Origin: Lyophyllum atratum
Taxonomy: Eukaryota; Basidiomycota; Agaricomycetes; Agaricales; Lyophyllaceae
Assembly: GCA_014905825.1 (NCBI GenBank)
Contig: JACGCN010000020.1
Span: 496,001 to 560,000 of the forward strand
Length of the DNA stretch: 64,000 nt
Direction: 5' to 3'
Made by a program: the position numbers and the translations under genes. Below the pieces are notes generated by a model. The model worked only from the letters and a program-made list of their open reading frames with translations, searched no databases and was not told the origin of the DNA. This document shows positions 5,487 through 37,886 of this stretch, one piece after another; position 1 is the stretch's first letter, and every line of letters starts with the position of its first letter.

Positions 5487-5599
5487 TATGGCAACAGGGA
5501 CTGACCAGCTCCCTAACCGACGTGCCGAGCCGTAATTTGAGCTCCGCCATCAACCAAACAAATCCACGACTCAGGACCCCGGATGTATCAATCTAATCT
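5487..5599 (+). repeat. Left terminal inverted repeat (113 bp)
   Basis: Matches the reverse complement of 37774-37886 without gaps. The four mismatches cluster at about 5523-5528. The similarity stops abruptly after ATCTAATCT. Confidence 0.88.
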
Positions 5600-5720
5600 G
5601 CTGATCAGTCAGCCATCCCGGCCAATTCAATCGCTCAGTCAGCTACTTGAAATTTATTTTGTATTTATTGCTCCTCACAATGACATCCCCTTGTGTCTGC
5701 TCATCTCATCTGCTTCTGCC

Positions 5721-6583
5721 ATGCCTGAATTTGGTGAAGGAGTCCTTGATGGTTTTCAAATCCAACATTTCCTAGAGGAAACTCCGGCAGAAGATCTCAT
5801 TCTAGAGGCTGTCTGGGGTGACGCCACATCAAAGGAGAAGGGAAATCACCCACCGGGTTCTTTGGCTGCTGAAGGACATGTATACCCTGTTCCTTCCTCA
5901 ACTATTGTCCAACGGGGCCTTTTCCCTCCTAAATACCACTCCCTAGAAAATGTTCCAATCTCAAATCACAAGCTCCAACTCGTCGTAACTGAACCATCAC
6001 CTCGCAATGTTATTTTGAAGTTCCGGGATGGAAATGGCGAGGATTACTGGACTCAGGTATGTCACACATTCTATCAATGCGTGTGATTGACTAATTTTCG
6101 TAAACCCTCAACTTTAGATTCAGTTATTCAAACATACATCCGTTCAAATATACTCGAAGGAAGAATGGCATGATGCAGTTTGCAAGGTTGACAAAGATGT
6201 ACGCTTTTTAACTTGGCAGGATTTCTAAATTACTGACAGCTTGATAATAGCGCCGAGGCTTTAAAATTGGAATCGCATTCGAATTCAAGACACACGTCCT
6301 CGCGCTACCAACAAATGATCTTTTGATTCAAGTAAGTCATTGTTTTTTGCTGCTGACATGGTTCTGTTGGTCTGATATCTTCTTTTTAGGTTCATTGGGC
6401 GTACTGCCGCAAGGATTTGCCTGCACAGCAAGCAAATATTTATACCGACTATTCTGCATTTTTGGCCGAGTTAGTAGCCTGGATGCGTTTGCGGAGAGCA
6501 TCGCGTTCGAACCGTACCGGCCTGGCTATGACTGCTATCAGGAAGGAGTCGAGTATATTCTATGGAGCAGGCGTCTATACTAC
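5721..6583 (+). pseudogene. Unknown element gene, 5' part, broken by LTR element A
   Basis: Start ATG at 5721 (MPEFGEGVLDGFQ). An in-frame upstream reading would begin inside the inverted repeat and lacks support. Exons are 5721-6056, 6118-6198, 6251-6331 and 6390-6583, all introns being short GT-AG in phase 0. Exon 4 ends exactly at the 5-bp target duplication ACTAC of element A, in the middle of an open frame; reading continues at 17576. With the insertion set aside, the summed exons are 1791 nt, or 596 residues plus stop, with no internal stop. This shows the gene was intact before the insertion. No family motif is recognised. The protein is soluble-looking, of mixed charge, with no signal peptide or membrane segment. 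Confidence 0.7.
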
Positions 6584-6788
6584 TGTAACGGGGTTACGGG
6601 GGTAGGCCTTGCGTTCACGCTAGGCGTAAGCTTGACTGGTCTGTCGATTGCTACGTCTAGGTAAATTTACAAGGTCTGCTTTGTATCTATTTACTCTAAG
6701 TCCTTTAATAGGCAACGCTGGAAGGCGTTGCCAAACAATGTGATACAGAACCCGCCTTGGGCGGGTTCCGGGTATATGCGCCCTTACA
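6584..6788 (-). repeat. LTR of element A (3' LTR in element sense)
   Basis: 205 bp, TG...CA ends, appearing identical to 17366-17570. Contains two strong hairpins: GGCAACGC/GCGTTGCC and GAACCCGCC/GGCGGGTTC. Confidence 0.95.
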
Positions 6789-6799
6789 TACCCCCCTTT
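6789..6799 (-). other. Polypurine tract of element A
   Basis: On the element strand AAAGGGGGGTA stands immediately before the 3' LTR, the expected plus-strand primer. Element B has the equivalent AAGAGGGGGTA. Confidence 0.8.
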
Positions 6800-7126
6800 A
6801 AGATCGCGTGAAGCGATCTTCACCAAGGAGTATGATTAGGCAAAGTAAAATAGTAAGATTATGGAAGGTGTAGGGCCCGGCGCCCTACACCAGAAATTGG
6901 TTAATGCAAAACTACGTGTTAGTCCACGTAGTTTCGACTTCAGAACTAGTGGGTAATAGCCCCACTTGACGACCACTACGATGCCGTTCAGGAGAATATC
7001 CGCGTGCTGAACATGCGTTGCTGCGTAAGATTATACGCAACCTGCGGAGTGCTTTTCGACGGTACAGGGGGTATGGCCCCTGACAATGGTGGCTGGCCCT
7101 CCCAGGTGCCCAAGTGTCGTCTTGGA

Positions 7127-10072
7127 TTAAGACCCCATCTCTGTGTCAGGGTCGGCAGGGTTGTTATCTGCCGGACCTTGGCTAGCGGATATCGCTGCGA
7201 GAGACAGAGGCCCGGATAGGGCCGCCACTGGATCCACATGGGTTTCGGCAGCTGGAGTTTCAGCTGCCGCGACTGTGGTTGAGGTCGCAGGAGTAGGGTC
7301 CGGTGCCGAGGGTGCCGCCATTTCGACGTTGGTAGACGTCGACGCCGATAAAGCGGGAGTAGGCAGGTTCGGAGGAGGCGAGTTGGCTCTCCTCCGAGAA
7401 CGCAGTTCCCGAAAGTGCGGATCTTCGCCTACAAGCATCCATTCGGAGCTTGCTAAGCAATCCACCGAGTCATGGTGTAGTTCCACGTGCATCAGTGTCT
7501 GAATGCGCGTGATGTCGTCGGTGGTGGGATGATACCACCCGTCCCACTGTGGTAAGGATGGGGGAACTCCCCAACGATCAAGACGAGAGATCCGATCGTT
7601 GTCAACAGTTCGAAGCAGGTCCCGATGAGGACCTGCCATCGTCCAGTAATGGTCGATATAGTGGAGCCCATAGGTATAGCTATGGTTCATCCAACTAATT
7701 GGGATTCCGCTATCAATCAAATGTTGAAGGGTCCCAGCCTCAGTTACCCGTCCATTGGGAGGGTAAAGTGGGAGGCGCGGGATGGTAAACTCTGGCCCGG
7801 TAATCGGTGTGAAAGGCCGATCTGGGTGGGCTTGGTCATGGGCCGCTACAGCCTCGGAATAGAAGAAGGGTCGGGCGGCGATAGCTGCGAAGCTTCGCAT
7901 GAACCACGACCGTAGGCTGTGAGTAGTTGGCGCGAGCATATTCGCCAACAAGTAGCCCCAGATCCCACGTCGATGGACGCGGAATCTGAAATCCATTGCA
8001 ATCCCTCCGTACTGGTTCTTGGAACCAGTACGCCCGTGGTGGATCATATGCCGAGCCCAGTGCTCGACATCGAATGCATGGTCGGGACCAGGCTGGGGCA
8101 GACCAGCGCCTCGTGTAGGCCTGTCTCCCCGATATTCAAATGCGTTTCCGGGCCTCCTAATTGTAGGGGTCCGCCATAGCGGAGACCGACCATCTATCGG
8201 TCGCCGAATGTTGCGGAATTCATCCGCAGATACGCGTACCATAGCTCGGTCGCGCATATGTGGCGCGACTGATAGAGACACGCGACGGAACTCGCGCAGG
8301 AGCATGTATCCTTCTACACGCTCCTGGTCCGTCACTCTGGTCGACCGTTCATTGATCATAACCAGCAGTTGATCCACTTCCCGAGGGTTCATTGGGAACC
8401 CGCGGGGCACGACTGCATAAAGGCGTCCCGGAGTTGGGAGGCCTTCCTGTCCGGATCCCAGCTCGCGGTCCGCATTTCGAGCCGCAGACTCCATTGCATA
8501 AACTCGGTTTTGGGTGGGTGACACATAGAACACCCGCCCTAGCATGTCCCAAAATCGGTTGTCCCTCTCGTGGCGGTTCTCAATGAAGACCACCCCAAGT
8601 TCGTCAGGAATCCGACCTGGGTTCTCGTTCTCGGCCTTTCGCGCTAAGTTAGCGCGATGTTGTTCTCGACCGGGTGCCTTCTTTTTGGCCACCTCTTCGT
8701 CCTCAGATTGAGAAGACGCGCCATTGTCCGACTCAGGAGAGCCGTACGGCTCCGTACGCTTCTCCTTGGGCGCTGGAGGTGGTGGTGATGGTGGCTGCAC
8801 CATCACTTGTGGAGGTGCAGGTGCTTCTGCTGGCATGGTATATCGCGAGGAAGGTTCTTTCTTACCTCCTCGCTCAGGGTTCCGAACCCGGCTTTCGTCC
8901 GGGGTCGGTAGTGGCAATGTCGGGGGTAATGGCAACCCCCGAGGTTCTTGTGGAGAGGCTACCACCGACGTTGATGACGTCGATGCACTCCTATTCATAT
9001 CTCGTGCTGGTAAGGGGCGCATTTCGCGCGCCCCCCTCTCTCCTCTTCCCTCTCGCCGGCCCCCATAGTCGAGCGGGCGTTCATCGCGCCTCGCATCGTG
9101 GTCTGGGTGGCGATCAGGGCGCCGCTGGTCAAACTCCGAGCGTCGATCATAACGTCTTGGCTCAACGTCGGCACGACGGTAGTCCGATCGTGCCTCTCGT
9201 CGCTCCGCGTATCTGCTCTCAGAGGGGGAGCGGTCTTGTCGACGCGCTGCCGTCTGCTGCATTTTGGTGGGACGGGATGATGATCCCTCCCCTCGGTCTG
9301 GCGACGATAGTGCCGGACGTTTCCTGGCCAAGCTCAACTGCTCGGCCATCGCTCCTTCTCTTGCCTTGACGCGCTCCAATTCGGTGCGCACACCCTCATA
9401 GCCGTCGAGCAGCTGGGTGATAACCAGCTGCGCCATTCCGTCGTCCAAAAAGTCGCAGAAGTCGCGGTGGATGCCCGCGGCCTCGAGTCGGTCCAAAAGG
9501 GATGCTACCAGACCATCGTGAGCAGATGGTCTGCGACTGGATGATGCGTACGACGCTTGGCGATCGTCCGCATGTCGTGTTGGCTGCCTATTCTGCACTG
9601 GCGGCGCTGGCGCTGGAGGTGTTGGGGGTCGTGGACGACCCTGGTCATCGACCTCCATTTGCTCGGGTTCATGGTACCGCGTGATCTGCGGCACCGGTTG
9701 GAAGGAAGGTTGCGCTTGAGGTTGGGGGTACCACGCCTGTTGCGGGTACCCCATGTAGTTCGGCATTGATGGCATCTGTTGAAATGCCATCGGTTGTTGT
9801 TGAAAGTAGCCGCCCATGACGGGTGGCTGTCCTTGTTGCGTTGCTGGTTGGCTCATGTGGCCAACTGGCGGTGGGACTTGATAGGGCTGCAGGCTCTGAT
9901 GCGCCTGCTGACCCAAGTAGGTAGGTGGAGGGGGCATGCCGTCGGCACGCCCCTGTATTTCCCCCCCACTTGAACCCATCCCGGGGTTCACTTGCTGGTC
10001 GGGGCGGTTATCACCACCCCGCGTTCCGTCGTTGCTGGAGCCTTGGCCTGGGTTGCTGTACACGTTGGACAT
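7127..10072 (-). CDS. Third ORF of element A, unknown conserved protein
   Basis: The first ATG of the open frame is at 10072 (MSNVYSNPGQGSS), giving 981 residues. The N-terminal third is low-complexity: rich in P and Q, then R, D and S. From about residue 450 a globular region begins, with ENRHERDNRFWDMLG, NRVYA, PRGFPMNP, RGAGL, HHGRTGS and a P.TPI.G.EFTI-like block. The same motifs in the same order occur in ORF3 of element B (27630-30659). The C-terminus is Ala/Ser/Thr-rich and ends DTEMGS. No hydrophobic segment or signal peptide is seen, so it is not a classical envelope protein, and I see no enzyme motif. It follows pol after about 117 nt and is preceded by a splice-acceptor-like CACCAG. 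Confidence 0.85.
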   Translation of the reverse strand: MSNVYSNPGQGSSNDGTRGGDNRPDQQVNPGMGSSGGEIQGRADGMPPPPTYLGQQAHQSLQPYQVPPPVGHMSQPATQQGQPPVMGGYFQQQPMAFQQMPSMPNYMGYPQQAWYPQPQAQPSFQPVPQITRYHEPEQMEVDDQGRPRPPTPPAPAPPVQNRQPTRHADDRQASYASSSRRPSAHDGLVASLLDRLEAAGIHRDFCDFLDDGMAQLVITQLLDGYEGVRTELERVKAREGAMAEQLSLARKRPALSSPDRGEGSSSRPTKMQQTAARRQDRSPSESRYAERREARSDYRRADVEPRRYDRRSEFDQRRPDRHPDHDARRDERPLDYGGRREGRGERGAREMRPLPARDMNRSASTSSTSVVASPQEPRGLPLPPTLPLPTPDESRVRNPERGGKKEPSSRYTMPAEAPAPPQVMVQPPSPPPPAPKEKRTEPYGSPESDNGASSQSEDEEVAKKKAPGREQHRANLARKAENENPGRIPDELGVVFIENRHERDNRFWDMLGRVFYVSPTQNRVYAMESAARNADRELGSGQEGLPTPGRLYAVVPRGFPMNPREVDQLLVMINERSTRVTDQERVEGYMLLREFRRVSLSVAPHMRDRAMVRVSADEFRNIRRPIDGRSPLWRTPTIRRPGNAFEYRGDRPTRGAGLPQPGPDHAFDVEHWARHMIHHGRTGSKNQYGGIAMDFRFRVHRRGIWGYLLANMLAPTTHSLRSWFMRSFAAIAARPFFYSEAVAAHDQAHPDRPFTPITGPEFTIPRLPLYPPNGRVTEAGTLQHLIDSGIPISWMNHSYTYGLHYIDHYWTMAGPHRDLLRTVDNDRISRLDRWGVPPSLPQWDGWYHPTTDDITRIQTLMHVELHHDSVDCLASSEWMLVGEDPHFRELRSRRRANSPPPNLPTPALSASTSTNVEMAAPSAPDPTPATSTTVAAAETPAAETHVDPVAALSGPLSLAAISASQGPADNNPADPDTEMGS

Positions 10073-10078
10073 GGTATC

Positions 10079-10115
10079 CTGGTGCGATGTAGTAGATAAG
10101 AGAAGAAAACGGAAC
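10079..10115 (-). promoter_or_regulatory. Putative 3' splice acceptor before ORF3 (element A)
   Basis: On the element strand a pyrimidine-rich run (TTTTCTTCTCTTATCTACT) leads to CACCAG, six bases before the ORF3 ATG. Element B has a comparable signal at the same place. This suggests ORF3 is made from a spliced subgenomic RNA; inferred from sequence only. Confidence 0.5.
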
Positions 10116-10189
10116 TCGCGCCAAACACAAAAATTATTGATGGTTATGTAACCGATCACTTGTGCCTGATCACATGACCACGTCGCGTC

Positions 10190-13100
10190 CTAGACGCGTC
10201 GCGGTAATTTGGAAGGCGTCTTGACGCCTTGCAACTCCAGGTAGCGGGTTAATGCCGCTAGCTGATTGCAGTTTGCATGTGGCTCCCAGGTAGTATCTCC
10301 CAGGCTCCACCGCACCTCGTATTCGAGGGTATTTTCCGGGGTCCATCTATGGCCCAGGATGTCTTCAACGAACCATTCGTGATTATCCGGCGCCCCGAAA
10401 TCATAAGGCTCCGGATGTGTACGGTTCGGAAACATTGTGTCGTTAGTTGCGTGGTGAGGACGCAACAATGATATATGAAACGTTGGATGAAGTCGGCGCT
10501 CAGATAGTGCCGCCGGCAGTTCCAACGTGTAGTTAGACGTCTCAGGCATAGCCTTAGCGACTCTGTAGGGCCCAACAAATTTAGGGCACAACTTCCTCGC
10601 TCGTCCCTTGGGCAGATTCAAATTCTTGGTTGACAAATACACCAAGTCGCCCTTCGAGATATCCGGTCCTTCAGACCGTCGCTTGTTCGCGGTGTGGGTC
10701 TGAAACACCCGCGCCTCTATAATGGCGTCGTGAGCTTCAGCCAGGTTCAGGAGCGCGCGTTTAGCGTACTCCTGGATTCCTTTGGGTAGCACGCTGTCAG
10801 AGCGTATTTCCTTAAGCATGGACGGCATATAGCCCCCATTTAGCTCAAACGGCGCAAATTTCGTCGTTCCCGACACGCTCGCATTTATCGCGAACTCTGT
10901 CAAAGGCACACGATCCACCCAATCTTTCTGGTCGTGGCGGACGACGGCGCGAAAAATCTGGCCAATGCTGCGATTGGCTCGCTCCGTCTGTCCATCCGTT
11001 TGCGGATGAAACGATGTGGACATCAGGAGCTTAGCTCCTAATAACTTGTGAAGCTCGCGCCACCAGCGCGATGTAAACTTAGAGTCTCGATCGCTTACAA
11101 TCGAGCTCGGTAGGCCATGGAGACGAACGATCTCCTTCAGGTAAACCCAGGATAGCTTTGTCGCTGTCATGGTGGTATGTATGGGTATCAAGTGCACCAT
11201 ACTGGTCATGCGACATATCACTACCCATAAGTAGTTAAAGCCTTGTGACTCGGGAAATGGTCCTATAAAGTCCATTCCGATAGAGTCCCAAGGTTTGATT
11301 GGGACTGGTAGGGAATGCAGTTTCCCTGCCGGTTTCCGTGTAGATGTCTTGGTCTGCTGGCAAAACTCGCACGTCTTGCAGAACGTCCGCACAGTATTGG
11401 CTAGCGATGGCCACCAATACCATCTTCGAATGTATTCGGTGGTGCGATCCGCCCCGAAGTGGCCCATGGTTTTGTGTGCTTGCTCAATTATCATAGTAAT
11501 GAGCTCCGGTTTTCGAGGAACACATAGAACGTCGTCTTTATTCTCGTTCTTTTTCCAAATGAGCTTGCCCTTCACAGCGAATGCGCGGTATTGCTCAGGA
11601 TTTTCTAAGATCAATGAGAATATCTTCTCATCGGCGTACCCTGATACCACTTCATGACGGATGTAAGCATCCGTCTTATCCGGGGGAGGAGCGACATTAG
11701 TCCTCCCCAATAACATATCACCAACAGTAATGTCTTGTCCACTACTGCTGATAGCATCTTGAGTGTGATGCGATGCAGCACTTGGTGCCGCCTCATCCAT
11801 TATGTCGGCCTCGATCTCGCGATCTTCTTTACGATCCTGTAATCGCTTGCTGCGACGTAATTCTTCGTCGTTCATCGCCCGAATTTCGACAACCTTTTCC
11901 ACGATCTCTTGGTACCGTGGGGCTGGTAGGTCTTCACCCGTAGGGTCAATCCGAGCGTCAGCATTGACAAAGTCATGGACATCGTAGGTATCCTTGTGCG
12001 TATCGCTTTCAAAATAGCGCGATAGGCAATCGGCTACTTTGTTAAGTTCGCCTTTCACATACGTGATGTCGAAGTTGAACTTCGACATGTATTCCATCCA
12101 ACGTCGCTGCCGAGGTGATAAGTTCACCTGGGTCTTAAAGAACTCGAGCGCCTTATGGTCGGTAATGATATGGATTTGGTATCCCACCAGTTTATCCTCC
12201 CATTTAAGTAGCGCCTCGAGAATCGCGAGGGTTTCGAGTTCATGTACAGCATAATTTTGCTGTGCATTCGTAAATTTCTTGGACATGAATCCAGCTGGCT
12301 GCGCTTGGATCCACGTAGGTCCTTGCCCATACATAGCGCCGACGCCTGACTTAGAGGCGTCGCATATAAGCCATATGGGTTCGCCTGTTTCCGGTTTGAT
12401 AGGCCGAATGATAGGCGTAGTACAACAAATATGCTTGATCATTTCAAAGCATCGCTGGTGTAGGGGTCTCCAATAAAAGGGCGACCCATTCTCGGTCATC
12501 GCCATTAGCGGTCCAGTATACGCCGTGATATCTGGGAGAAAGTGTCCCAGATAGTTGACTAGTCCAACGAATCGTTGAATATCATTGTAGTTGCGTGGTG
12601 TTCTCCATTCCCGGATGCGTGCTAATTTATCCGCATCTGGGTGGATTCCTTGGTCGTCGATTATATGACCAAGGCAGTCGATTCGGTCCGAGTACAGTTC
12701 GCACTTTTTCCACTTCAGATACAGGGACTGTTCGCGTAACCGTTCGAATATAACACGAAGGTGTGCTTCGTGCTCTTCAATAGAGTTCGAGAATATAAAA
12801 ATGTCGTCCAGGTAGACGTGCATAAACTTCCCAATGACGTCTCGAAATATAGACGTCATTAACCGTTGAAAGGTAGCGGGGGCATTGCAGTCCCCGATTT
12901 GCATAATGTTGCTGGTGTATGTACCAGCAATCGTCGCAAACGCAGTTTTATGGACGTCCTTCTCGAGGATGCGTACTTGTTCATACGCGTCTGTAAGATC
13001 AATCTTCGACCGTATTTTGCCACGGGCGACGTCTTCTCGTATGATTTCCTGGTCCGGTAACGGGGTTACGTCTTTGACTGTATTGTCATTTCGTTGCCGC

Positions 13101-14134
13101 GCATCCAATGGTGTTCTGAGGGAGCCGTCCTTTTTCGGTATACATAACAGCGGTGCTGCCTGTTTCACCGAACACGGCTCCCACCACTTGGTGTCCGTAT
13201 ATTTATTAACCTTCGCGTAGAATTCCTCGCGAAGGGACATAGGACATCGTGGTGTGTGGTAATTGTACTGCTTGTCTTCATCGATGAGGTTTATTTCATG
13301 GTTAACCTCTCGCCAGGGTGGTAGTTCCGGTTTAGTACCACCCACGATGTCTTCAAACTCATCATGCCATTGCTGGCGGAGTCGCGGGTAGTCTTCTCGG
13401 GTAAGGCCTATATTAGCGGCCTTGCCCTTTCCGTTATCAGTCCTTGCAGCGCGTATGGACGCTGCATCTTGCTTGCTAGGTTTATGATCGAACCTAGCAC
13501 GCATCTTCACCAGCGAAAACTCGCTCTCGTCTCTGACTGGAAGCCTATATAGTGGCCTCTTCGATCGTCGACGATTCATTATGAAGTTCACCTCCGATGG
13601 TTCCGAGACTTCGCGTGGTTGTGCATTTCGATACACGTCTCCTTGCATAGTTCGGGTTCTGCCCTCGGTAGCTCTTATAGAAGCTATCACGGCGTTCCAT
13701 TCCTGAGGCATTCTAGGGTCGATCATCCACTCATAGTCTGGATGTGGTGTCGGTTGGTCCCAGAACGACTGATGGCTTGACTTCGAGTACGGTTCTGACC
13801 CCGTATCTCGATCCGCTTCGTTCGTTTTCGGCACTTGAGGTGCATGTTGTTGCTCATCGCTCGTAGGAGGCTCTTTCCGAGCCTTCTGGTGTTTTTTACT
13901 TGGTTTTTTCTTTGGTAGAGGTGGTATATCCCCCCCTTCCAGAGTTTCTTGAAACTCTTCCTCGGACAGTAATAATGCTGGATGATCCTTAGGTAGGCTG
14001 TTTACCGACCTACCCTCATCACTGAATTCGTCATCGTCTTCCATGGTCGCCTTCTTCCCGCCAGTAGATAGAAGGGCCGATGGACCCTTCGAGGAACCTG
14101 GTGTATTCTCAGATTCCTCCACCACTGCTTTGAG
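10190..14134 (-). CDS. pol: Pol of element A: RT, RNase H, integrase, chromodomain
   Basis: The open frame directly follows the gag-protease UGA in the same frame. No ATG lies near the start; the first is in the motif KKATMEDDDEF. Domains in order, numbered from a GTG at 14125: reverse transcriptase with KIDLTDAYEQVR and the catalytic YLDDI at about 430-440; RNase H with the ICDAS and DHKALEF motifs at about 580-655; integrase HHCC zinc finger (H...H, CKTCEFC) at about 880-915; DDE core (MDFIGPF, VSDRDSKFTS, TDGQTERANRS) at about 945-1045; then CPKFVGPYRV. A C-terminal chromodomain (EYEVRWSLGDTTWEPH) lies at about 1250-1300. Chromodomains of this clade direct insertion to marked chromatin. 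The frame is fully open, so the element may be autonomous. Confidence 0.95.
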   Translation of the reverse strand, partial: LKAVVEESENTPGSSKGPSALLSTGGKKATMEDDDEFSDEGRSVNSLPKDHPALLLSEEEFQETLEGGDIPPLPKKKPSKKHQKARKEPPTSDEQQHAPQVPKTNEADRDTGSEPYSKSSHQSFWDQPTPHPDYEWMIDPRMPQEWNAVIASIRATEGRTRTMQGDVYRNAQPREVSEPSEVNFIMNRRRSKRPLYRLPVRDESEFSLVKMRARFDHKPSKQDAASIRAARTDNGKGKAANIGLTREDYPRLRQQWHDEFEDIVGGTKPELPPWREVNHEINLIDEDKQYNYHTPRCPMSLREEFYAKVNKYTDTKWWEPCSVKQAAPLLCIPKKDGSLRTPLDARQRNDNTVKDVTPLPDQEIIREDVARGKIRSKIDLTDAYEQVRILEKDVHKTAFATIAGTYTSNIMQIGDCNAPATFQRLMTSIFRDVIGKFMHVYLDDIFIFSNSIEEHEAHLRVIFERLREQSLYLKWKKCELYSDRIDCLGHIIDDQGIHPDADKLARIREWRTPRNYNDIQRFVGLVNYLGHFLPDITAYTGPLMAMTENGSPFYWRPLHQRCFEMIKHICCTTPIIRPIKPETGEPIWLICDASKSGVGAMYGQGPTWIQAQPAGFMSKKFTNAQQNYAVHELETLAILEALLKWEDKLVGYQIHIITDHKALEFFKTQVNLSPRQRRWMEYMSKFNFDITYVKGELNKVADCLSRYFESDTHKDTYDVHDFVNADARIDPTGEDLPAPRYQEIVEKVVEIRAMNDEELRRSKRLQDRKEDREIEADIMDEAAPSAASHHTQDAISSSGQDITVGDMLLGRTNVAPPPDKTDAYIRHEVVSGYADEKIFSLILENPEQYRAFAVKGKLIWKKNENKDDVLCVPRKPELITMIIEQAHKTMGHFGADRTTEYIRRWYWWPSLANTVRTFCKTCEFCQQTKTSTRKPAGKLHSLPVPIKPWDSIGMDFIGPFPESQGFNYLWVVICRMTSMVHLIPIHTTMTATKLSWVYLKEIVRLHGLPSSIVSDRDSKFTSRWWRELHKLLGAKLLMSTSFHPQTDGQTERANRSIGQIFRAVVRHDQKDWVDRVPLTEFAINASVSGTTKFAPFELNGGYMPSMLKEIRSDSVLPKGIQEYAKRALLNLAEAHDAIIEARVFQTHTANKRRSEGPDISKGDLVYLSTKNLNLPKGRARKLCPKFVGPYRVAKAMPETSNYTLELPAALSERRLHPTFHISLLRPHHATNDTMFPNRTHPEPYDFGAPDNHEWFVEDILGHRWTPENTLEYEVRWSLGDTTWEPHANCNQLAALTRYLELQGVKTPSKLPRRV

Positions 14135-14137
14135 TCA
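14135..14137 (-). promoter_or_regulatory. In-frame UGA between gag-protease and pol (readthrough site candidate)
   Basis: Context on the element strand is GAA TGA CTC AAA; pol continues in the same frame with no further stop. Element B has GAA TGA CTG GCC at the same place. UGA followed by CU is a leaky context known for readthrough, best known as UGA CUA. Confidence 0.6.
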
Positions 14138-17245: not shown

Positions 17246-17365
17246 AGGGTCCAATAGGGTCCGAAAGGGTCCGTGGGTTTTTTGTGGGTTCTTGACGTCG
17301 GTTGGCGTCGGTTGGTGATCGAGAGTCGGTAGATGTAGCAAATTAAGCAAGTTAGCTTAAAAAAA

Positions 17366-17570
17366 TGTAACGGGGTTACGGGGGTAGGCCTTGCGTTCAC
17401 GCTAGGCGTAAGCTTGACTGGTCTGTCGATTGCTACGTCTAGGTAAATTTACAAGGTCTGCTTTGTATCTATTTACTCTAAGTCCTTTAATAGGCAACGC
17501 TGGAAGGCGTTGCCAAACAATGTGATACAGAACCCGCCTTGGGCGGGTTCCGGGTATATGCGCCCTTACA
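17366..17570 (-). repeat. LTR of element A (5' LTR in element sense)
   Basis: Second 205-bp copy, appearing identical to 6584-6788; followed by the target duplication ACTAC at 17571-17575. The base run after it on the element strand, TTTTTTTAAGCTA, is shared with element B and does not begin with the TGG expected of a tRNA 3'-end primer site. Confidence 0.95.
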
Positions 17571-17575
17571 ACTAC

Positions 17576-27507: not shown

Positions 27508-27600
27508 ACGAACGCGTCGTGAGCACGTGATTGTGGTCATCAGATCGAGATGGCTGAGTTCCAATGAGGGAATGTTGCGGTGACATATCACTGTCACAAC

Positions 27601-27622
27601 TTTTTTTTCTCTTCATCAACAG
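27601..27622 (+). promoter_or_regulatory. Putative 3' splice acceptor before ORF3 (element B)
   Basis: Eight T residues, then CTCTTCATCAACAG, eight bases before the ORF3 ATG at 27630: a textbook polypyrimidine tract plus AG. The matching signal in element A makes it more credible. Confidence 0.55.
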
Positions 27623-27629
27623 CAACCAC

Positions 27630-30600
27630 ATGGACGCCAACGACCCCGACAACCCAGCAAACGCGCAGGGCGGCTTCGGCCGCCCGAATCAGGATCTGAC
27701 CCCGGGACAGGGTCACGGAGGGGGAGGAGGCGCGAGTAACGCGTCCCCGAACCTTCCTGCCCAAGTTCGCGGGCCGATGCAATTCGGGACCCTGGACCAC
27801 CAAGTGGCCCAAGGGTTTTACCCGCAGCAGCAGCAACAGCAGCCGATACCGAACCCGATGGGTTCGTATCCGTATCCGGCACCGATGGCCCCTCCGGGGT
27901 CGTCACAATATGGCTACCACTACCAGCCAACCCAGGGTTTTGCAAACCCTGGTACTTCTAACACCACCTGGGGATCGTATTCTACGACCCCCCAACAGTT
28001 TCTTTACGCGACGAGGCCACAAGACCCCGTCATGATGGAGGTTGACGATGGCGCTCGGCGTCCTCGGCTACCGACCCCGCCACCTGCTCATCGGGGATAT
28101 TCCTCGAATACAGAGCACCAGTCGGAGCGCAAGAAGGGAAAGCGCCCCGAACGACAACCAGAGGCGACTCCGCCTCGAGACCAGGCTTGGACGAGCGTCG
28201 TCGATGACGTTCGTCGACGACTAGTGGCGGAAGGGATTGATACCGAATTCCTCGGCTTCGTCGAGTACGATTCGGCTGCCCTTGTCGTGACTCAGCTCTT
28301 GGACAGAGCTGAGGAGGCACGACTCCAAGCCGCCCGCGAACGTTCGCGAGCTGATCTGATAGCAGCTCAGCTCAAGAACGAACGGAAGAGGATGTCATCA
28401 TCCTCACCTTCTCGGGAAGATGGACCTTCTTCAAGGCCCATCAAAGTTCATCAGACGGACACGGCGCGTCAACAACGTGCCGTAGCGCCTATTCCTAGGC
28501 GCGACGCTCGTCCCCAGTCTCCACGTCGGCGCTCTGAGCGTCAACGATCTCCAGAGCCCTTTCCCGCTCTCCCACGAATGTCGTCGGGATCGCGGAGTAC
28601 AGGGAGTTCGTTTGGCGAGGCATTCCGGCGCTTTGAGCGCACGGATGACTCGGACTCCTATATCAGTAGCGACCCGGTGGGCCGTGATATCGAGCGACGG
28701 GATGATCGGTATCCCTCGCCCTTCGAGGTTCGTATCAACCGGCCATGGATCGAGTCCATGCGGCCGGAGGAGTACCGGAGGCCAGTGGCCCCCACTCGCC
28801 CGTTACCGTCTTCATCGAAGTCGGTCAAACCTGTGGCTTCTTCAAAGTCACAAAAAGTCACCCCCGCTAACCGCGACGGTGGACGTCGTGAAGTCACGAC
28901 GTACAAAGTACCCGAGGCTGCACCAGGACCCCCTCAGTGGGTCCTGACTCCGCGTCCTGCCCCACCGCCGACAACATCAGTTGCCGGCCCGTCCAGGGCT
29001 CGGATCATCCGTGATCCTCTTGAGGCCTCGGTTCACGGCGAATCCGACGATGGCGCCAGCTCTGGCGCCTCGGATAAGGTCGTGTCTGCGAAGAAGAAGA
29101 AGGGTCAAGAGACCCACCGAGCTAATGAAGCTCGGCATCGGGAGAATGAAGAACCTGGGCCCATTGCCCAGGAAATGGAAGTAGTGGTGGTTAATAACCG
29201 CCACGAACGGAGCAATCGCTTGTGGGACATGTTGGGCCCACAGTTTTATTGGTCTCCCTACGACAACAGGGTATACGCCCTCATGGAAGCTTTCAGAGCT
29301 TCCTCTCGTGAGGTTGGGGACCGCCAACGGTACCAATTGCCGGCCTCTTCTGGTCGGCTTTATGCCGCATTCCCGAGAGGATTCCCGATGAATCCTTTCG
29401 AAGTTCAGAAGTTGTATGACTTCGTCTTTAAAAAGACGACGAATGGCACATGGCGGCTCTCAGACGAAGAGCGATGCCAAGCCTATGAGCTCCTCGCTGA
29501 GTTCATTAGGATCTCGCAGCAGATCCACCCCCGCCTTCGTGACCGCGCCATGCAAGCGGCCGCAGAACTTTCCCACTTCGAGGAGCGTGAGCCTCCCCGA
29601 GTAGCTTCAGGCTACCAACCGTGGCAGCACCCACCTGTTGTGCGTCCTGCCGGCGCACTGTCTGCCAAGGTTACTGGCAGAACACGCGGGGCTGGGCTAA
29701 CGCCGCCTTCGGGCAGTAGCAGCTTCAACCAGGAGCTCATGGCGCAGTATATGCTGCACCATGGACGTCCTGGTACCCGGAACTGGCACCATGGCTTAGC
29801 CATGGATTATGCCCGCCGAATCTCCCGTGAGACCGTCTTCGGCCACACGCTGACCTCCATACTGGCACCTGTCAGTAGCAATCACCGTTCCGCATTCGTG
29901 AGAGTGCTGGCGAGCATTATGGTTCGCCCATACTTCTACCATGAGATGGTAGAAGCTCACAATGCAGCCAACCCCGATCGACCATTAGTGCCGATCTCAG
30001 GTCGCGAGTTCACCATAACTCGCTTTAACCCGCCAGAGGACCGTAACCTCATTTCTGAGGATATGGTCGTCCGGCACTTGATCGAAAACGGTATCCCCGT
30101 AGAGTGGATACATCACTCGTATGCTTACGCGCTCCATTGGTGGAATCACACCTGGCCAATGGACGCCGAACTTCAGGCGACTTATCGCCAGGTCGACGAT
30201 CAGCGTCGGGCACGGCTGGATGAGCATGGCACTCCGCCAATCATCCTTCAGTGGAGTGGGTGGCGTTACGCTACCCCCGACGACTGTACTCGCCTCAATA
30301 TCCTTGAGGGAATTGAGGCTGCAGAACATGGCGGTATCCGTCAAACTGGAACCGACTGGCTCTCCGTTGGAGAACCACTTCTCTTCGTCGATCTCCCCAA
30401 TCGGAGAGATATGCCATCTGACGACCCTATGGAAGGGCCATCACACTCGTCGGCACCAATCGGTGTCGTCCCCCAACCTCCTGTGGCTTCGGCCACCGCG
30501 ACTTCGACCACAGTCGCAGCGCCATCGAGCGCTGAAACCCCTGTGGATACCATGGCGGCCCCATCTGGGCCACCTCCATCGGCAGCGGCTCCCGCTAGCA

Positions 30601-30659
30601 CTCTCCCTCCGTTACCAGAGGACAGGGACGAAACGATGGGGGATGTCGAACATGGGTGA
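27630..30659 (+). CDS. Third ORF of element B, unknown conserved protein
   Basis: ATG at 27630 (MDANDPDNPANAQG), 1009 residues. P/Q/G-rich N-terminus with a poly-Q run, then an RS/RD-rich middle, then a globular part from about residue 500 sharing motifs with ORF3 of element A. These include NNRHERSNRLWDMLG, NRVYA, AFPRGFPMNP, TRGAGL, HHGRPGTRN and DRPLVPISGREFTI. The C-terminus is Ala/Pro/Thr-rich and ends with ETMGDVEHG. No membrane helix, zinc motif or catalytic signature is recognised. That two diverged elements both keep it open means it is selected, hence functional for the element. A second structural protein or a chromatin or RNA-binding factor are possibilities, none demonstrated. 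Confidence 0.85.
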   Translation: MDANDPDNPANAQGGFGRPNQDLTPGQGHGGGGGASNASPNLPAQVRGPMQFGTLDHQVAQGFYPQQQQQQPIPNPMGSYPYPAPMAPPGSSQYGYHYQPTQGFANPGTSNTTWGSYSTTPQQFLYATRPQDPVMMEVDDGARRPRLPTPPPAHRGYSSNTEHQSERKKGKRPERQPEATPPRDQAWTSVVDDVRRRLVAEGIDTEFLGFVEYDSAALVVTQLLDRAEEARLQAARERSRADLIAAQLKNERKRMSSSSPSREDGPSSRPIKVHQTDTARQQRAVAPIPRRDARPQSPRRRSERQRSPEPFPALPRMSSGSRSTGSSFGEAFRRFERTDDSDSYISSDPVGRDIERRDDRYPSPFEVRINRPWIESMRPEEYRRPVAPTRPLPSSSKSVKPVASSKSQKVTPANRDGGRREVTTYKVPEAAPGPPQWVLTPRPAPPPTTSVAGPSRARIIRDPLEASVHGESDDGASSGASDKVVSAKKKKGQETHRANEARHRENEEPGPIAQEMEVVVVNNRHERSNRLWDMLGPQFYWSPYDNRVYALMEAFRASSREVGDRQRYQLPASSGRLYAAFPRGFPMNPFEVQKLYDFVFKKTTNGTWRLSDEERCQAYELLAEFIRISQQIHPRLRDRAMQAAAELSHFEEREPPRVASGYQPWQHPPVVRPAGALSAKVTGRTRGAGLTPPSGSSSFNQELMAQYMLHHGRPGTRNWHHGLAMDYARRISRETVFGHTLTSILAPVSSNHRSAFVRVLASIMVRPYFYHEMVEAHNAANPDRPLVPISGREFTITRFNPPEDRNLISEDMVVRHLIENGIPVEWIHHSYAYALHWWNHTWPMDAELQATYRQVDDQRRARLDEHGTPPIILQWSGWRYATPDDCTRLNILEGIEAAEHGGIRQTGTDWLSVGEPLLFVDLPNRRDMPSDDPMEGPSHSSAPIGVVPQPPVASATATSTTVAAPSSAETPVDTMAAPSGPPPSAAAPASTLPPLPEDRDETMGDVEHG

Positions 30660-31045
30660 GGCACTTTACTCATCCGCCTTTGACCCCATGGACGCATGAC
30701 GTCAGGAGGACCAGTTCGACGATCAGACACTACTTGATCGCGAACTTGGGTATCGTCGATGGCATCGACACCTAGGCGTTTTAAACGTCTAGTTCTTCAT
30801 TGATATCCCGAGGACAGCAGTATGCTGCCCTCTCAGCTGTTTTCTCCAGCGTGAGTTTCTCAACTCACGCTTAACCATCGTCGAGGTAATATACCTCGAC
30901 TCGGGTTCGGAACTATGTGATACTCTTGCAGCGGGACGACGGGTCCCGCGCTTTATCTCTTATACCATATGTTATAAGTTCCACGAACTTATTATAATTT
31001 ATTTACAATACTATCTACTTCTATGAAGACTGTTTACGCAGTCTT
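30660..31045 (+). other. Noncoding 3' region of element B
   Basis: About 390 nt between ORF3 and the polypurine tract, with several short self-complementary phrases (AACTCACGC/GCGTGAGTT; ACTGTTTACGCAGT). Element A has a comparable 338-nt stretch at 6789-7126. No ORF. Confidence 0.6.
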
Positions 31046-31056
31046 AAGAGGGGGTA
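31046..31056 (+). other. Polypurine tract of element B
   Basis: AAGAGGGGGTA immediately before the 3' LTR. Confidence 0.8.
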
Positions 31057-31258
31057 TGTAACGGGCACGGTCAACGCCTATAGCGCTGACCGTAATGTTT
31101 GGCAATACCATGTTTGGCAACGCCTTCGGCGCTGCCTATATAAACGGTTGTGTACAATAGATGTAAACAAGCCCTTGTAAACTCGTGTATAGCAATAGTA
31201 CCCATTGGTCAAGCTTACCACGCAACGCAAGGCATCCCTCTGTAGCGCCCGCGCTACA
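31057..31258 (+). repeat. 3' LTR of element B
   Basis: 202 bp, appearing identical to 19792-19993; followed by the target duplication CGGCG at 31259-31263. Confidence 0.95.
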
Positions 31259-31889: not shown

Positions 31890-32704
31890 GGTTTTTAAAG
31901 TTTGAGCTTGGAAATAGGACCAGCAAGCATATGCCGGCTAGCTTGCAAAAGGATATCCATTTAAAAACCACCCATTTGAAGTTATAGGTAGGACGATGGG
32001 AGAATGACCATTTTTGGGCATCAGACGGTGTACGCCTTTCCAAGTTACACCATTCCTAGTTTTTTAAAGTCTGAGCTTGGGAATAGGACCAGTAGACATA
32101 TGCCAGCCAGCTTGCCAAAGGATATCCATTTAAAAACCACCCATTTGAAGTTATAGGTAGGACGATGGGAGAATGACCATTTTTGGGCATCAGACGGTGT
32201 ACACCTTTCCAAGTTACACCATTCCTGGTTTTTTAAAGTCTGAGCTTGGGAATAGAACCAGTAGGCATATGCCAGCCAGCTTGCCAAAGGATATTCATTT
32301 AAAAACCGCCCATTTGAAGTTATAGGTAGGACGATGGGAGAATGACCATTTTTGGGCATCAGACGGTGTACACCTTTCCAAGTTACACCATTCCTAGTTT
32401 TTTAAAGTCTGAGCTTGGGAATAGAACCAGTAGGCATATGCCAGCCAGCTTGCGAAAGGATATTCATTTAAAAACCACCCATTTGAAGTTATAGGTAGGA
32501 CGATGGGAGAATGACCATTTTTGGGCATCAGACGGTGTACACCTTTCCAAGTTACACCATTCCTAGTTTTTTAAAGTCTGAGCTTGGGAATAGAACCAGT
32601 AGGCATATGCCAGCCAGCTTGCCAAAGGATATTCATTTAAAAACCACCCATTTGAAGTTATAGGTAGGACGATGGGAGAATGACCATTTTTGGGCATCAG
32701 ACGC
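31890..32704 (+). repeat. 169-bp tandem array, about 4.8 copies
   Basis: The phrase CTGAGCTTGGGAATAG (TTTGAGCTTGGAAATAG in the first unit) recurs at 31901, 32071, 32240, 32409 and 32578, a period of 169-170 bp. Units differ by only a few bases and the last is cut after GGGCATCAGACG. It lies downstream of the alpha-kinase gene. The ORFs across it are repeats of the same translated unit and are not taken as genes. Confidence 0.92.
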
Positions 32705-32998: not shown

Positions 32999-35519
32999 TT
33001 AGGGCTGGGCTGGACGCAGCACCGAGCCTTGTGATTCCCAGAGGTCGTAGTCAGTCGGAACCTCAAACCATTCACAGAAATAATTGCATCTGTGGTTGGG
33101 CTCAAGATTTGTATGGCCGGAGGGATGGTTGCCATCAGCGAAAATAACACCAAGGGCACTGGGGAGATAGGGCGTCAAGTTCCATGCAAATTTTCAGATT
33201 TTTAACAGGTACCCACCTGTCGGTTATGATCTGAGGATCACTAAGCAAAGAGTTTCCCCCTATATAAAGGTATTAGATGAGTGGTAGCTGGCACTGATAT
33301 TCCGAGCATATACCTTGGTAGTCAGATACAAACACCAGCTTCCTTGTCTTGAAGTACTGCACATGTTGACTGAAGGCGAGAAAGAGTGCGCGCTCCTGGT
33401 CTTCCTTGTCTGATAATGGAAGTGGGACTGGTGACACGTTGTTCATATACTTCCTGAAAGCCCCTTCCCTTTCGCCACCAATGACTTCTTCAAGAAGGAA
33501 TACTTGACTCTCCTTAGCGCTGTCTGCATGCTCAACAGCTAGAGCGGCGTCGACGAATCTGAGCTGAGGAATATAGAAAGGTGGGGGTTTCCCTTTCGCC
33601 TGGATGCCCTTTTCGACAAAGGCATAAACAAGGTCAAGCAGCACGCGCGCCCAAGCAAGGCATGCAATCTCCATCGTTAGATTCTGGGCTTGTGTTCGTC
33701 CATCGTGTGGAATGTTCTGGGTTACCTGTATCTCTTTGCCCTTGCTTCGAACGGAGCCAGATTTCTCATAGTACGTCTGCTTTGCACAAACATCTCTGCT
33801 TTGACCAAAAAGGGGGCGGCTGGCTGTCCCAAATGACGATAGCTTGAAACCGCCTTTCTTCTGCTTCTTAGATGAAAGCTCCAGCTGCAACGTGGCTTCG
33901 CCCGGTGGTCCAAGGTATGCTTTATGGTTAACCAGGTTCTTCCCAGAGCACATCTCGAGCAGCTGGCTCAGCGTGTGATGTTCGACGGGATATATGGTAA
34001 CATGAATTGCCTTTAGGTCGACTAGGAGTGCGCTTTAGTATGTTGTAAGCAATTTCTTTGGATTAAAGACATACATAATGATTGAACGTCCTTAGCTGTG
34101 GGCAGCTGCTGTGAACGGAGTGCATCCCCAAGTCTTCTTGTGGTCGGTGACAAGTCATAACTAGGACCAGCTTTGGGACGCTTCGAACTTCGCCCTGGAG
34201 TCTGTGGTGTATCCGAGACCAGGTTCGTCCTCATGTCTACGAGAACACCAGATATGCGGTGGGTTTGCTCTGGTTCTGGTGACGGTGACCTGTAGCGTTT
34301 TTTGCCCTGTTTCTTGCCCTGAGTTCGGGTCGGTGTCATCACCTCCTGTCGCTCTGACTGCTATATTATACAGTCAATACAGCTGTAGATATGAAGACGA
34401 AGATTCACGAACCTTTGCAACCTGAGCATGCAACCGCTCCTCCTCCCTCTGCTCGCTCCAGGTCAAATACTGATTGTAAATGGGATTCGGGACATGGAAG
34501 TTGATGATGCATCGACCCTCTTTGAATACTTGACCACCCTTGGCAGTCTTGAAGAATGGCTTCGAGATCACATCACGATCTGGAGTATTTGATTTAATCC
34601 TTGCTCCATCTTTATCTCGCATGACAAAGTCATGGATACTGATGTGAAACCCCTCCGTGTATTCTTGCCAAGAAGGTAAGATCTCATCATATAAAATCTT
34701 CTTGAGCTCCGTCGCCCCGATATGAACAGGAATGTTATTGACGGCCTCGACAATGTCCTATCACATATTGAGTCCAGGCACTTAGTCTGGAGATTTGAAA
34801 ACGTACCCCGACTAATAAAAACTTGACTCCCCCAATGGGCTTGCGAACAGCCCGGACTTCGACGGTTACAACATTGCCGCCATTGGTGGAGAATGCCTTC
34901 TGGGCCAGTGATTGTGTGGCATACGCCTTTTGCGCCAGTGATTGTCGTGTCGCATGGTACACAGCATGATTGCCAGTATACCCGGAACCCCCCTGTGGTC
35001 CAGAATGAGAACTTGCTGATATCTGGCCCATACTGAATTGGGGAACAAAACCAGGTAGCTGCACTGAGGGCCCAGCTGGGGCTGCCATGCGCATCGGACC
35101 ATTTGACGTCCCGATGACATAGCCTGCCTGAAACGATGGCACATATGCAGTGGGGCCTACTGCTTGGACCACATTTGTTACTTCTATACCCGGCCCTGAG
35201 CAATCCATGTCAAGAAACATATGAGGGCAGACTCACGACCTCTTTGCGCACTCGAAATTTGTCTATGAATTTCCTTCTGATGATCCGCTCTGGGTAAAGC
35301 CATAGACGTCCTGCGTACTGTCGTCTTCTTCTGCATGTAGTACTGATAGCACCCCAAGCAGAGCATCCTGCCAGGCTCATTGGGGTTGTTGCTGTGAAGG
35401 AAGTGCAACTTTGTGCCTGCCGGAAATGTCGCCGTGCATGACTCGCGCGCACAGTGTACCACAGCAGTGTTGTCAACGCCAGTAAAGTCAGCAGCATACT
35501 GGGTGGTCTCTTCAGACAT
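32999..35519 (-). CDS. Alpha-type protein kinase carried by the TIR element
   Basis: Exons 35519..35237, 35195..34807, 34757..34413, 34357..34075, 34021..33314, 33259..33217 and 33158..32999 give 736 residues. The N-terminus has a CxxxxC...CLGC pattern that may bind zinc (about residues 23-58, then QKKTTVRR). A low-complexity region follows with a tandem QSLAQKAYAT/QSLAQKAFST repeat. The C-terminal third matches the MHCK/eEF2K-type alpha-kinase fold: RFVDAALAVEHAD, VFLLEEVI, FSQHVQYFKTRKLVFVSDYQG (the DLQG-like metal site), SLLSDPQIITD, and the zinc-holding end NHRCNYFC. The glycine-rich segment reads FADGN where FGEGN-like is usual, so activity is uncertain. Such kinases phosphorylate Ser/Thr in helical substrates. 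The target here is unknown, and a role in the element's life cycle is inference from location. Confidence 0.85.
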
Positions 35520-35641
35520 GACCAAAGAACAAATGGTGACGGAGGAGGCGCGTGAGTTGGCAAGCAGCGGAGGTTTAGAACATGGCAAAAAGAGTCAAAT
35601 TTGCAATCGAGAATGTGACAAGTGTGATATTAAGAAATTGG

Positions 35642-37405
35642 CTAATCACTGAAGTCCGCATATTCTCGGAGGTCGATGTTGCTCTCGTCCTCACTCCCAT
35701 CGTCAAGTCCTGCAGGTAAAACAGGATCATCTAAGCCACCCATGTATACATAACCATATGGCCCCACGACGTTATCACCGTGTCGCAGCTCCCGGAGGCC
35801 AGCCATGACAGGCACATCATGCTCCTCACCTTGATCTGCCATAAGCAGGGCAGCTGTGAAGGCAGGATCATGAGGAAGTGCAAGAAATGCCTCCAACAAA
35901 TCTGAATACACGGCCCAGAATGTGAGAGATGATACTGCAGGACTTCCAATAGACACATATAAGGCCGAGGCTTGTTCACCAAAAGTTGGTGGTACGAGCT
36001 GGAAAACAGGGTCATCAGGGGGAGCCCACTCCTTTTCCACCTCGTCAAAGAGTTCTGGAGATATCACAACCTTGAGAAACTGCATTCAGGAGATGTGTGG
36101 TGTAGAACTTGGCATGAAACCTACCATGAAGTTTTTGGACCCATTGAACTGGTGAGGCTTTGCATGAATCAAATCAGGAATTCCATGTGGCAAAATTTTG
36201 TGCTTGTCGGCGCGGCGAGGACTGGAGTTGTACCGCGAGGTCCAAAGGTCAAGCTCTGCCTGCAGCCAAGGGATGGCTAGCCATCGAAACACAAGCCTGA
36301 TAAGCCAAAATCAGCGACACATAATATCTAAAATGATATCCGTACTTTTCAATTGGGTCATTAGGGTCATACCATCCATTATTCAAGCCTTCATCCAGGA
36401 TGTTCTCAAAGCCAGGCGTCCACTGGTGCCGAAGCTGTGACCAAAGTGCCTCGGGCTTGATATTTTTCTTGTCAATACACCATCGATGCTGCAACGTATC
36501 GCTCAGGCTGGGGTCTAAACGGTGGCGAAGTGAGGTGTGCATGTTTGCCACACCGTTGTTCTCCTTTCCACGATCACTTTGAGTGATGAGGGGAATGCCT
36601 GGCGCAAAAGGGTAATGATGAAACTGAAGAGCTATTCAGCAAGAGACCCACCGCCAACCTTACGTCCTGCAGAAATGTAGTAGCCATTGATAAGATGTGT
36701 GTTCCGGTTACACCACCAGATTTTCAGCCAAGCCACCCGACCAGGATAAGGATCTATCGAACAATGCATCCACAATCCAAACCTCTGCCATTTATCGTGT
36801 TGATCAATGGCCCATATATCCATGACACCAGCGGCCCAAAACCGTTTCCGCCGGAATTTCTGAGACTTGCGCGCAGCTACAGCATCTGGCTCCGTCTCCT
36901 TAAAGAAGTCTAACAGCTGCTGCCTGTGTAACGGGTTAATGAAGATCGGTTCATGTGCATATCCTACTCACTCGGGAACCTTCAATTCATAATCTTGACG
37001 TAGTAGAGTTACCATCCCGCGAGCTCCCATTGTGGGAAATCGTGTCCGTATTTCGTCTACAAGCGGCTTGATATCCTCAAAAGATGTGGTCTGTTGGCGA
37101 GCACCCTTAAGTCCCAACTTTGTGCGAAGTCGTCTCAGCGATGTTATACTAAAAGTAGTGGTTCAGCCCAGGTGGCCATGCCAGCTGTCAGCGTCACTCA
37201 CCTGAAACCGTACTGTGCCTTGTCAAAGTGATCAAGTACATGCTCGACAATCTTTTTCTCTGACAAACCAAGGCGCCAATAGTACCGAACCCACTTATGA
37301 AGTTCTTCCTCTGGCGCTGCTACACATTCAGAACTATTAGTACCAGGTATTCATAGCAATAGTGCACAACATACGAATTGGCTTGTGTTGATTAGGCTTA
37401 GGCAT
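35642..37405 (-). CDS. Integrase-core (DDE) transposase-like protein of the TIR element
   Basis: Exons 37405..37375, 37319..37202, 37148..36972, 36923..36652, 36598..36346, 36296..36125 and 36079..35642 give 486 residues. The N-terminal region (EELHKWVRYYWRLGL, ITSLRRLRTKLGL) looks like paired HTH-type DNA-binding segments. The middle fits the fungal 'integrase core' proteins common in agaricomycetes: MDIWAIDQHDKWQRFG (first Asp), RVAWLKIWWCNRN, PLITQSDRGKENNG (second Asp and following Glu), MHTSLRHRLDPSL, WTPGFENILDEG, FRWLAIPWLQAELD. The acidic C-terminus ends DLREYADFSD. It starts about 370 bp inside the right inverted repeat and is the best candidate for the protein that mobilises the element. 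Acceptor AGs three bases apart at 37320/37317 leave one residue uncertain. Confidence 0.85.
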
Positions 37406-37773
37406 GGGTCCCCTTTGTCGAAGACCAAGAACCCTACCACTGACTAATCAACAAGATATAGTAAATGGCCACGCGGTGGGGGTGCACCCAGCAGCGTGTA
37501 TGATGGACAATTTCCATGATGAAATTATGCTGCACACATGCCTTCAATAAGGCACTAGTAACATACATGTGTTGGCGTTCTCTGAATCTATTTCTGAATT
37601 CTGAAATACAGCAGATGCTCCGAGATGAAAAGACCAGCCCGCTCTAAGATAAACAGATTGATACAACTGTAAGTAAAGTACTCAACCCGGCTTCAGAAAC
37701 TTGCAGAGATTGTCACTGGTGTTGTGCAGAATACTTGGCGGTGGGTGGGAGGAGACAGAAATACGGTGAGGAG

Positions 37774-37886
37774 AGATTAGATTGATACATCCGGGGTCCT
37801 GAGTCGTGGATTTGTTTGGTTGATGGCGGAGCTCAAATTACGGCTTTGACCGTCGGTTAGGGAGCTGGTCAGTCCCTGTTGCCATA
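37774..37886 (-). repeat. Right terminal inverted repeat (113 bp)
   Basis: Reverse complement of 5487-5599, about 109 of 113 identical and gap-free; the outer end is immediately followed by CAAGAT. Confidence 0.88.

What the first reader, a model, noticed from the sequence alone, without database searches (positions are those of the whole stretch)
5487..37886. A three-gene inverted-repeat element pairing an integrase-like protein with an alpha-kinase
Seen: 113-bp TIRs (about 96% identical), an exact 6-bp direct duplication CAAGAT outside them, and between them an integrase-core gene, an alpha-kinase gene and an unknown 596-residue gene. Known: integrase-core proteins and alpha-kinases are both expanded in some mushrooms, and cargo genes do ride on transposons. 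Inferred: the kinase and the unknown protein are standing parts of a mobile unit of about 9.9 kb. That would explain the kinase expansion and would be a DNA transposon with its own protein kinase. I know of no described superfamily with this content.
Basis: partly seen in the sequence, partly recalled or inferred. Interest (0 to 1): 0.9.

Follow-up and report, generated by a model that had tools for sequence, protein, structure and literature searches.

The report
Mushroom transposon with kinase and glycosylase-like gene
A jumping DNA element in the mushroom Lyophyllum atratum carries, besides its transposase, a protein kinase and a third protein that looks like a DNA-repair glycosylase, which may help it escape silencing by DNA methylation.

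Summary
Confirmed: window 5487-37886 has 113-bp TIRs (109/113 identical) and an exact 6-bp duplication, CAAGAT. Without two nested Ty3/gypsy retrotransposons it is 9,936 bp. Four paralogous empty sites carry one CAAGAT, so it moved. Host: Lyophyllum atratum.

It is not a new superfamily. Termini (TATGG..CCATA), 6-bp TSD, integrase-core transposase and alpha-kinase match IS3EU, whose kinase was published in December 2025 (Kojima, PMC12730594). A second copy and three other complete IS3EU elements in this genome also carry transposase plus kinase.

Reading: interchangeable base-modifying enzymes that counter methylation silencing. Enzyme activity is inferred; two Fpg-type residues look changed. 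Novelty: new variant of a known kind.

The parts
5481..5486 (.). target-site duplication CAAGAT, left copy
   Evidence: single copy in four empty sites
5487..5599 (+). left TIR, starts TATGGCAACAGG
5721..18950 (+). gene 3, Fpg/Nei-fold (predicted) glycosylase-like protein, about 596 aa by analogy with P0001 (598 aa); broken in this copy by the LTR element at 6584-17570, which lies in its fourth exon; end read by eye
6584..17570 (-). nested Ty3/gypsy LTR retrotransposon 1 (LTRs 205 bp identical, TSD ACTAC), not part of the transposon
   Evidence: absent from the C81 copy
19792..31258 (+). nested Ty3/gypsy LTR retrotransposon 2 (LTRs 202 bp identical, TSD CGGCG), not part of the transposon
   Evidence: absent from the C81 copy
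31892..32703 (.). 169-bp tandem repeat array (4.8 units), kept next to a TIR in four of the five gene-poor copies
32999..35519 (-). alpha-kinase gene, 7 exons, 737 aa; catalytic-motif residues kept
35642..37405 (-). IS3EU transposase gene, 7 exons, 486 aa, D149-D208-E249 (DD40E)
37774..37886 (-). right TIR, ends CCTGTTGCCATA
37887..37892 (.). target-site duplication CAAGAT, right copy

Best explanation
It is a 9.9-kb IS3EU-superfamily cut-and-paste DNA transposon, later hit by two LTR retrotransposons. Shown: TIRs, TSDs, empty sites, a second copy, relatives with the same gene set. Inferred from family knowledge: the DD40E transposase binds the TIRs, cuts the element out and inserts it with a 6-bp stagger. 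The alpha-kinase is a standing IS3EU component; its catalytic motifs are kept, and I infer that it phosphorylates the transposase or a host repair or chromatin factor (target unknown). The third protein has a predicted Fpg/Nei DNA-glycosylase fold with the N-terminal Pro-Glu of that family. Inferred: it excises modified cytosine, or finishes the removal of oxidised methylcytosine, on the element's DNA, and so counters methylation silencing. That is the job proposed for the TET/JBP dioxygenases of other IS3EU elements. My odds: IS3EU 0.95, Fpg/Nei fold 0.85, anti-silencing role 0.35.
Against: Sequence libraries do not see gene 3 as Fpg/Nei: Pfam gives no such hit in 19 members at E<=10 and the PDB profile search gives none. 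MutM's hhalign probability is only 15.9%, and Nei alone ranks 9th of 18. By eye, the Fpg Lys57 position reads Asn in 'PRNV' and the H2TH Asn reads Val, so substrate or activity may differ. The models are modest (mean pLDDT 69.8 and 60.9) and share their alignment rows. In the window gene 3 is broken, and in the C81 copy all three genes carry lesions. The dioxygenase-like gene matches 2OG/Tet_JBP models only below their cut-offs. No expression, methylation or biochemical data were available. The window's layout (transposase and kinase on the same strand) differs from Kojima's opposite orientation.
Confidence: 0.75

Rival explanations
1. Gene 3 is a diverged Fpg/Nei-fold protein that serves transposition itself: as an abasic-site or end-processing enzyme during gap repair, or as a pure DNA-binding factor for the TIRs or the 169-bp repeats, not as a demethylase.
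For: Two residues used by classical Fpg for base excision look replaced while the N-terminal Pro-Glu is kept (by eye). The 169-bp repeats are kept in four of five gene-poor copies, as a binding array would be.
Against: Some IS3EU elements carry gene 3 and others a dioxygenase-like gene, and the two did not co-occur at any of the 12 stretches compared; that points to DNA base modification rather than end processing.
Confidence: 0.35
2. The kinase and gene 3 are passive passengers, host genes picked up by chance and carried without use.
For: Transposon cargo is common in fungi (recalled); three ~3-kb copies with perfect TSDs moved without transposase or kinase.
Against: The trio recurs in elements that share only about 27-54% protein identity over the matched exons. 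Kinase motifs are kept in 6 of 6 sequences compared, one of them the C81 copy, and MPE..E in 18 of 21 gene 3 homologues. The alpha-kinase is also in all TET+ IS3EU families per Kojima.
Confidence: 0.12
3. It is a new superfamily, or a Polinton- or Ginger-like element, rather than IS3EU.
For: Polintons also make 6-bp TSDs and carry a retroviral-type integrase (for the TSD; integrase recalled).
Against: TAYGG..CCRTA ends, 6-bp TSD, size about 10-11 kb, alpha-kinase partner; no H2C2 domain found in the transposase, while Ginger1/2 make 4-5 bp TSDs.
Confidence: 0.05

Closest known systems
IS3EU/GingerRoot DNA transposons (Repbase; Kojima and Bao 2023 PMC10045372; Kojima 2025 PMC12730594)
   Same: TA..TA termini of type TAYGG..CCRTA, TIR over 30 bp, 6-bp TSD, IS3/IS481-like DDE transposase, alpha-kinase gene
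   Different: Here the third gene is an Fpg/Nei-fold protein instead of TET/JBP, and in the window the transposase and kinase point the same way
TET+ IS3EU of rusts and Tuber (Kojima 2025)
   Same: Element C1:3381062-3392303 of this genome has the same plan: transposase, dioxygenase-like gene in the middle, kinase opposite
   Different: Section 3.2 of that paper names no IS3EU among TET+ transposons of Agaricomycotina; the window family has no dioxygenase-like gene by tblastn
Fpg/Nei (MutM, NEIL1) DNA glycosylases
   Same: Predicted fold over residues 2 to about 440 (ends of the aligned ranges), N-terminal MPE..E, H2TH-like G.GVYT..E....AGLSP
   Different: Sequence similarity too low for Pfam; Lys57 and H2TH Asn look replaced by eye; long C-terminal part; carried by a transposon. 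The host has two separate loci with an H2TH domain over cut-off, C70 and C60, one of them with a Fapy domain over cut-off
Alpha-kinases (TRPM7 kinase, PDB 1ia9)
   Same: D.QG..LsDPQI and H.CN..C motifs; E 6.8e-5 by sequence (run with P0022, the annotated kinase of the C81 copy)
   Different: Long N-terminal region with a Cys-rich stretch and no Pfam match

Membership tests
IS3EU DNA transposon | 6-bp target-site duplication | tested here: met
   6 of 7 TIR-bearing places of this family, and 3 other complete elements found by a scan that asked for TIR and TSD together; four empty sites
IS3EU DNA transposon | TIRs over 30 bp ending TAYGG..CCRTA | tested here: met
   113-bp TIR, TATGG..CCATA
IS3EU DNA transposon | IS3/IS481-like DDE transposase without HHCC domain | tested here: met
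   PF24764 integrase core, no H2C2 hit at E<=0.1, DD40E
IS3EU DNA transposon | transposase clusters with Repbase IS3EU in a tree | not testable with these tools
   Repbase sequences not held
IS3EU DNA transposon (TET+ layout) | alpha-kinase opposite to transposase with a TET/JBP gene between | tested here: not met
   window family: same strand, no dioxygenase-like gene found; the C1 element has this layout with a weakly matching dioxygenase-like gene
Fpg/Nei DNA glycosylase | Fpg/Nei fold with H2TH | tested here: met
Fpg/Nei DNA glycosylase | N-terminal catalytic Pro-Glu (recalled: P1, E2) | tested here: met
   MPE..E in 18 of 21; the models P0014, P0015 and P0019 lack this N-terminus
Fpg/Nei DNA glycosylase | catalytic Lys57-type residue and H2TH Asn (recalled) | tested here: inconclusive
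   look replaced by Asn and Val by eye; no reliable residue alignment
Fpg/Nei DNA glycosylase | Pfam PF01149/PF06831 match | tested here: not met
   none in 19 members at E<=10
Fpg/Nei DNA glycosylase | glycosylase/AP-lyase activity | not testable with these tools
   needs enzymology
Alpha-kinase | PF02816 with catalytic Lys, D.Q and DPQ motif and zinc motif | tested here: met
   54.5 bits over cut-off 21.3; motifs in 6 of 6
Ginger1/Ginger2 | 4-5 bp TSD | tested here: not met
   6 bp
Polinton/Maverick | protein-primed DNA polymerase and capsid genes (recalled) | not tested
   no such Pfam hit among the ten open frames scanned, but not searched specifically

The most novel reading that the evidence does not exclude
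IS3EU transposons of mushrooms carry their own Nei-type DNA glycosylase that removes methylated or TET-oxidised cytosine. It is interchangeable with the TET/JBP dioxygenase of sister elements, so a transposon encodes a base-excision demethylation step (and a kinase to control it) to escape silencing.
Probability: 0.3. Interest if true: 0.88.

Novelty: new variant of a known kind. Interest (0 to 1): 0.64.

Why it matters
Transposon-borne TET/JBP dioxygenases are thought to fight DNA methylation, but oxidation alone does not restore cytosine; excision must follow. IS3EU lineages in the same genome with a glycosylase-fold protein in place of a dioxygenase-like one make 'transposons carry demethylation enzymes' directly testable. 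The work also shows that the alpha-kinase, published for TET+ IS3EU of rusts and a truffle, is a standing part in this mushroom too, and gives a protein family annotated only as hypothetical a predicted fold and a testable activity.

Tried and rejected
New superfamily: dropped after searches showed that IS3EU with alpha-kinase is published. Passive cargo: disfavoured (see rivals). Gene 3 by sequence alone: Pfam and the PDB profile gave nothing. hhalign against Nei alone gave nothing special (rank 9 of 18); a joint profile of Nei, MutM and six enterobacterial Nei also aligned on the H2TH stretch (score 32.1, probability 12%), without a matching control of unrelated profiles. Linkage of gene 3 to a transposase in other species: I compared contig lengths in the lists by eye and saw none shared outside L. 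atratum, so gene 3's linkage is shown only in this genome. TIR scan: 9 regions, 3 gave a TIR pair with a 6-bp TSD; C71, C86, C60, C97 and C102 gave none; the two C64c candidates are arms of a palindrome without matching TSDs. A later scan of C93 and a longer C102 stretch gave none. Alpha-kinase loci L001-L004 and L008 show no similarity to this kinase family and no transposase within 1.5 kb at E<=1e-3; a longer stretch around L001 (C93) then showed a remote transposase about 3 kb away. Literature: ten searches in open-licence PMC papers; by titles and abstract starts none is about a transposon-borne Fpg/Nei protein, and searches found no paper with their terms. Repbase and supplements were not searchable, so absence from print is not established.

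Full report
OBSERVATION. The 113-bp terminal inverted repeats are 109/113 identical and similarity falls off after them, and CAAGAT flanks the element on both sides. Splicing by GT-AG introns gives a 486-aa integrase-core protein and a 737-aa alpha-kinase on the minus strand, and a third gene on the plus strand whose fourth exon is split by retrotransposon 1.

MOBILITY. The TIR finds 14 matches at 7 places. The window, C81, C80, C108, C1 and C102 have perfect and different 6-bp duplications (CAAGAT, TAGCAG, GTTTCG, GTCCAG, ATCCTC, CATGCC); C2 has lost its last two bases and has no TSD. C81:480555-491560 is a second copy with all three genes and without either retrotransposon: 2 differences in the first 1,097 bp, a one-base deletion in gene 3, and inserts of roughly 600 bp in the kinase and transposase genes. 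C80, C108, C1 and C2 are about 3-kb derivatives without transposase and kinase that keep part of gene 3 and the 169-bp repeats; C102 is a 185-bp copy. The window's flanks lie uninterrupted at four other places, each with a single CAAGAT; three are 98-99% identical to the flanks and one (C86) about 80-93%.

WHAT FAMILY. I saw the passages of Kojima 2025 (PMC12730594) printed, its outline, the first of two parts of its Discussion and section 3.2, and passages of Kojima and Bao 2023 (PMC10045372). IS3EU there has TA..TA ends (TAYGG..CCRTA in the rust families), TIRs over 30 bp, 6-bp TSDs and, in all TET+ families, an alpha-kinase gene. The window element meets these. Its transposase keeps D149, D208 and E249 in 96%, 98% and 100% of 51 aligned proteins: the window's and 50 of the 120 listed.

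THE STANDING GENE SET. In this genome three more complete IS3EU elements have TIRs matching at 28-30 of their first 30 bases and exact 6-bp TSDs. C64:2906616-2917819 (ACTGGT; 'C64a') and C64:3146151-3157403 (CGATCC; 'C64b') carry transposase, kinase and gene 3. C1:3381062-3392303 (CGCATG) carries transposase and kinase with a gene between them that weakly matches 2OG-Fe(II) oxygenases (E 0.0083) and Tet_JBP (E 0.14), both below cut-off. That is the plan Kojima describes for TET+ IS3EU. C71 and C86 hold incomplete second copies of C64a and of the C1 element. Eleven places match the kinase (ten if the lone N-terminal match at C86:1116132 belongs to the C86 copy); 8 have a transposase beside them: C65, C81, C1, C86, C60, C64a, C71, C64b. 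Eleven places match gene 3. Four are the ~3-kb derivatives. Of the other seven, five have transposase and kinase (window, C81, C64a, C64b, C71), C102 has a remote transposase but no kinase found, and C97 has neither in the 9.9 kb read. Twelve stretches were searched for the dioxygenase-like gene: it was found at C1, C86 and, in two damaged pieces, C64c; not at the window, C81, C64a, C64b, C71, C60, C97, C102 or C93. Gene 3 was not found at C1, C86 or C64c. In other species transposase and kinase sit together: consecutive locus tags in Arthromyces matolae and joint gene models in Crassisporium, Tricholomella and Arthromyces.

MECHANISM. Shown: anatomy, TSDs, empty sites, co-occurrence. Inferred from the DDE family: cut-and-paste with a 6-bp stagger. 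Inferred: the glycosylase-fold protein and the dioxygenase-like protein stand in for one another because both act on modified DNA bases; Kojima argues that the TET/JBP proteins undo methylation silencing. Oxidised methylcytosine needs excision, and a Nei-type enzyme could provide it. The kinase's role is open; its Lys, D.QG, DPQ and H.CN..C residues are kept in 6 of 6 sequences compared.

JUDGEMENT. The element is a member of IS3EU with a third component that I found in no paper of the searches listed. The fold assignment survives a change of master sequence, but both models draw on overlapping alignments. Function is a hypothesis with direct tests.

Noticed in passing
window 6584-17570 and 19792-31258: Two mutually diverged Ty3/gypsy elements share an unusual plan: gag and pol in one frame separated by a single UGA followed by CU (possible readthrough), and a third ORF of 981 and 1009 aa after pol, 37% identical to each other and without Pfam match.
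   Followed up: partly
P0001, P0023, P0030 versus window genes: Gene 3, kinase and transposase are 92%, 89% and 83% identical to Crassisporium funariophilum (another suborder), but the best matches in Lyophyllum shimeji and Tricholomella of the same family are 45-72%: suggests horizontal transfer between mushrooms, unless those are other element families.
   Followed up: partly
window 35519-35642: Transposase and kinase are about 120 bp apart on one strand, and annotated models in L. atratum, Crassisporium, Tricholomella and Arthromyces fuse them into one protein; a true fusion product cannot be excluded.
   Followed up: partly
window 4879-5486 and 37887-37984: The element sits inside another repeat of about 0.7 kb with 29-bp inverted ends; four other copies of that repeat gave the empty sites.
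   Followed up: yes
C80, C108, C1:3405330, C2:842577 (L025-L028): The ~3-kb derivatives contain about 1-1.6 kb not matched in the window, in some including a stretch that reads like a gypsy integrase tail, beside kept 169-bp repeats.
   Followed up: partly
G000 C46:1009573-1075915: Four alpha-kinase exon hits spaced about 22 kb apart, a possible tandem amplification of another alpha-kinase type.
   Followed up: no
G000 C93:247842 and C2:510837: Weak integrase-core hits (below cut-off) lie about 3 kb upstream of the two best-scoring alpha-kinase hits; possibly a second, remote transposase-kinase pairing.
   Followed up: partly
G000 C64:620496-635894 (L041, L042): A palindrome of about 15 kb whose arms hold remnants of the kinase and of the dioxygenase-like gene.
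   Followed up: no
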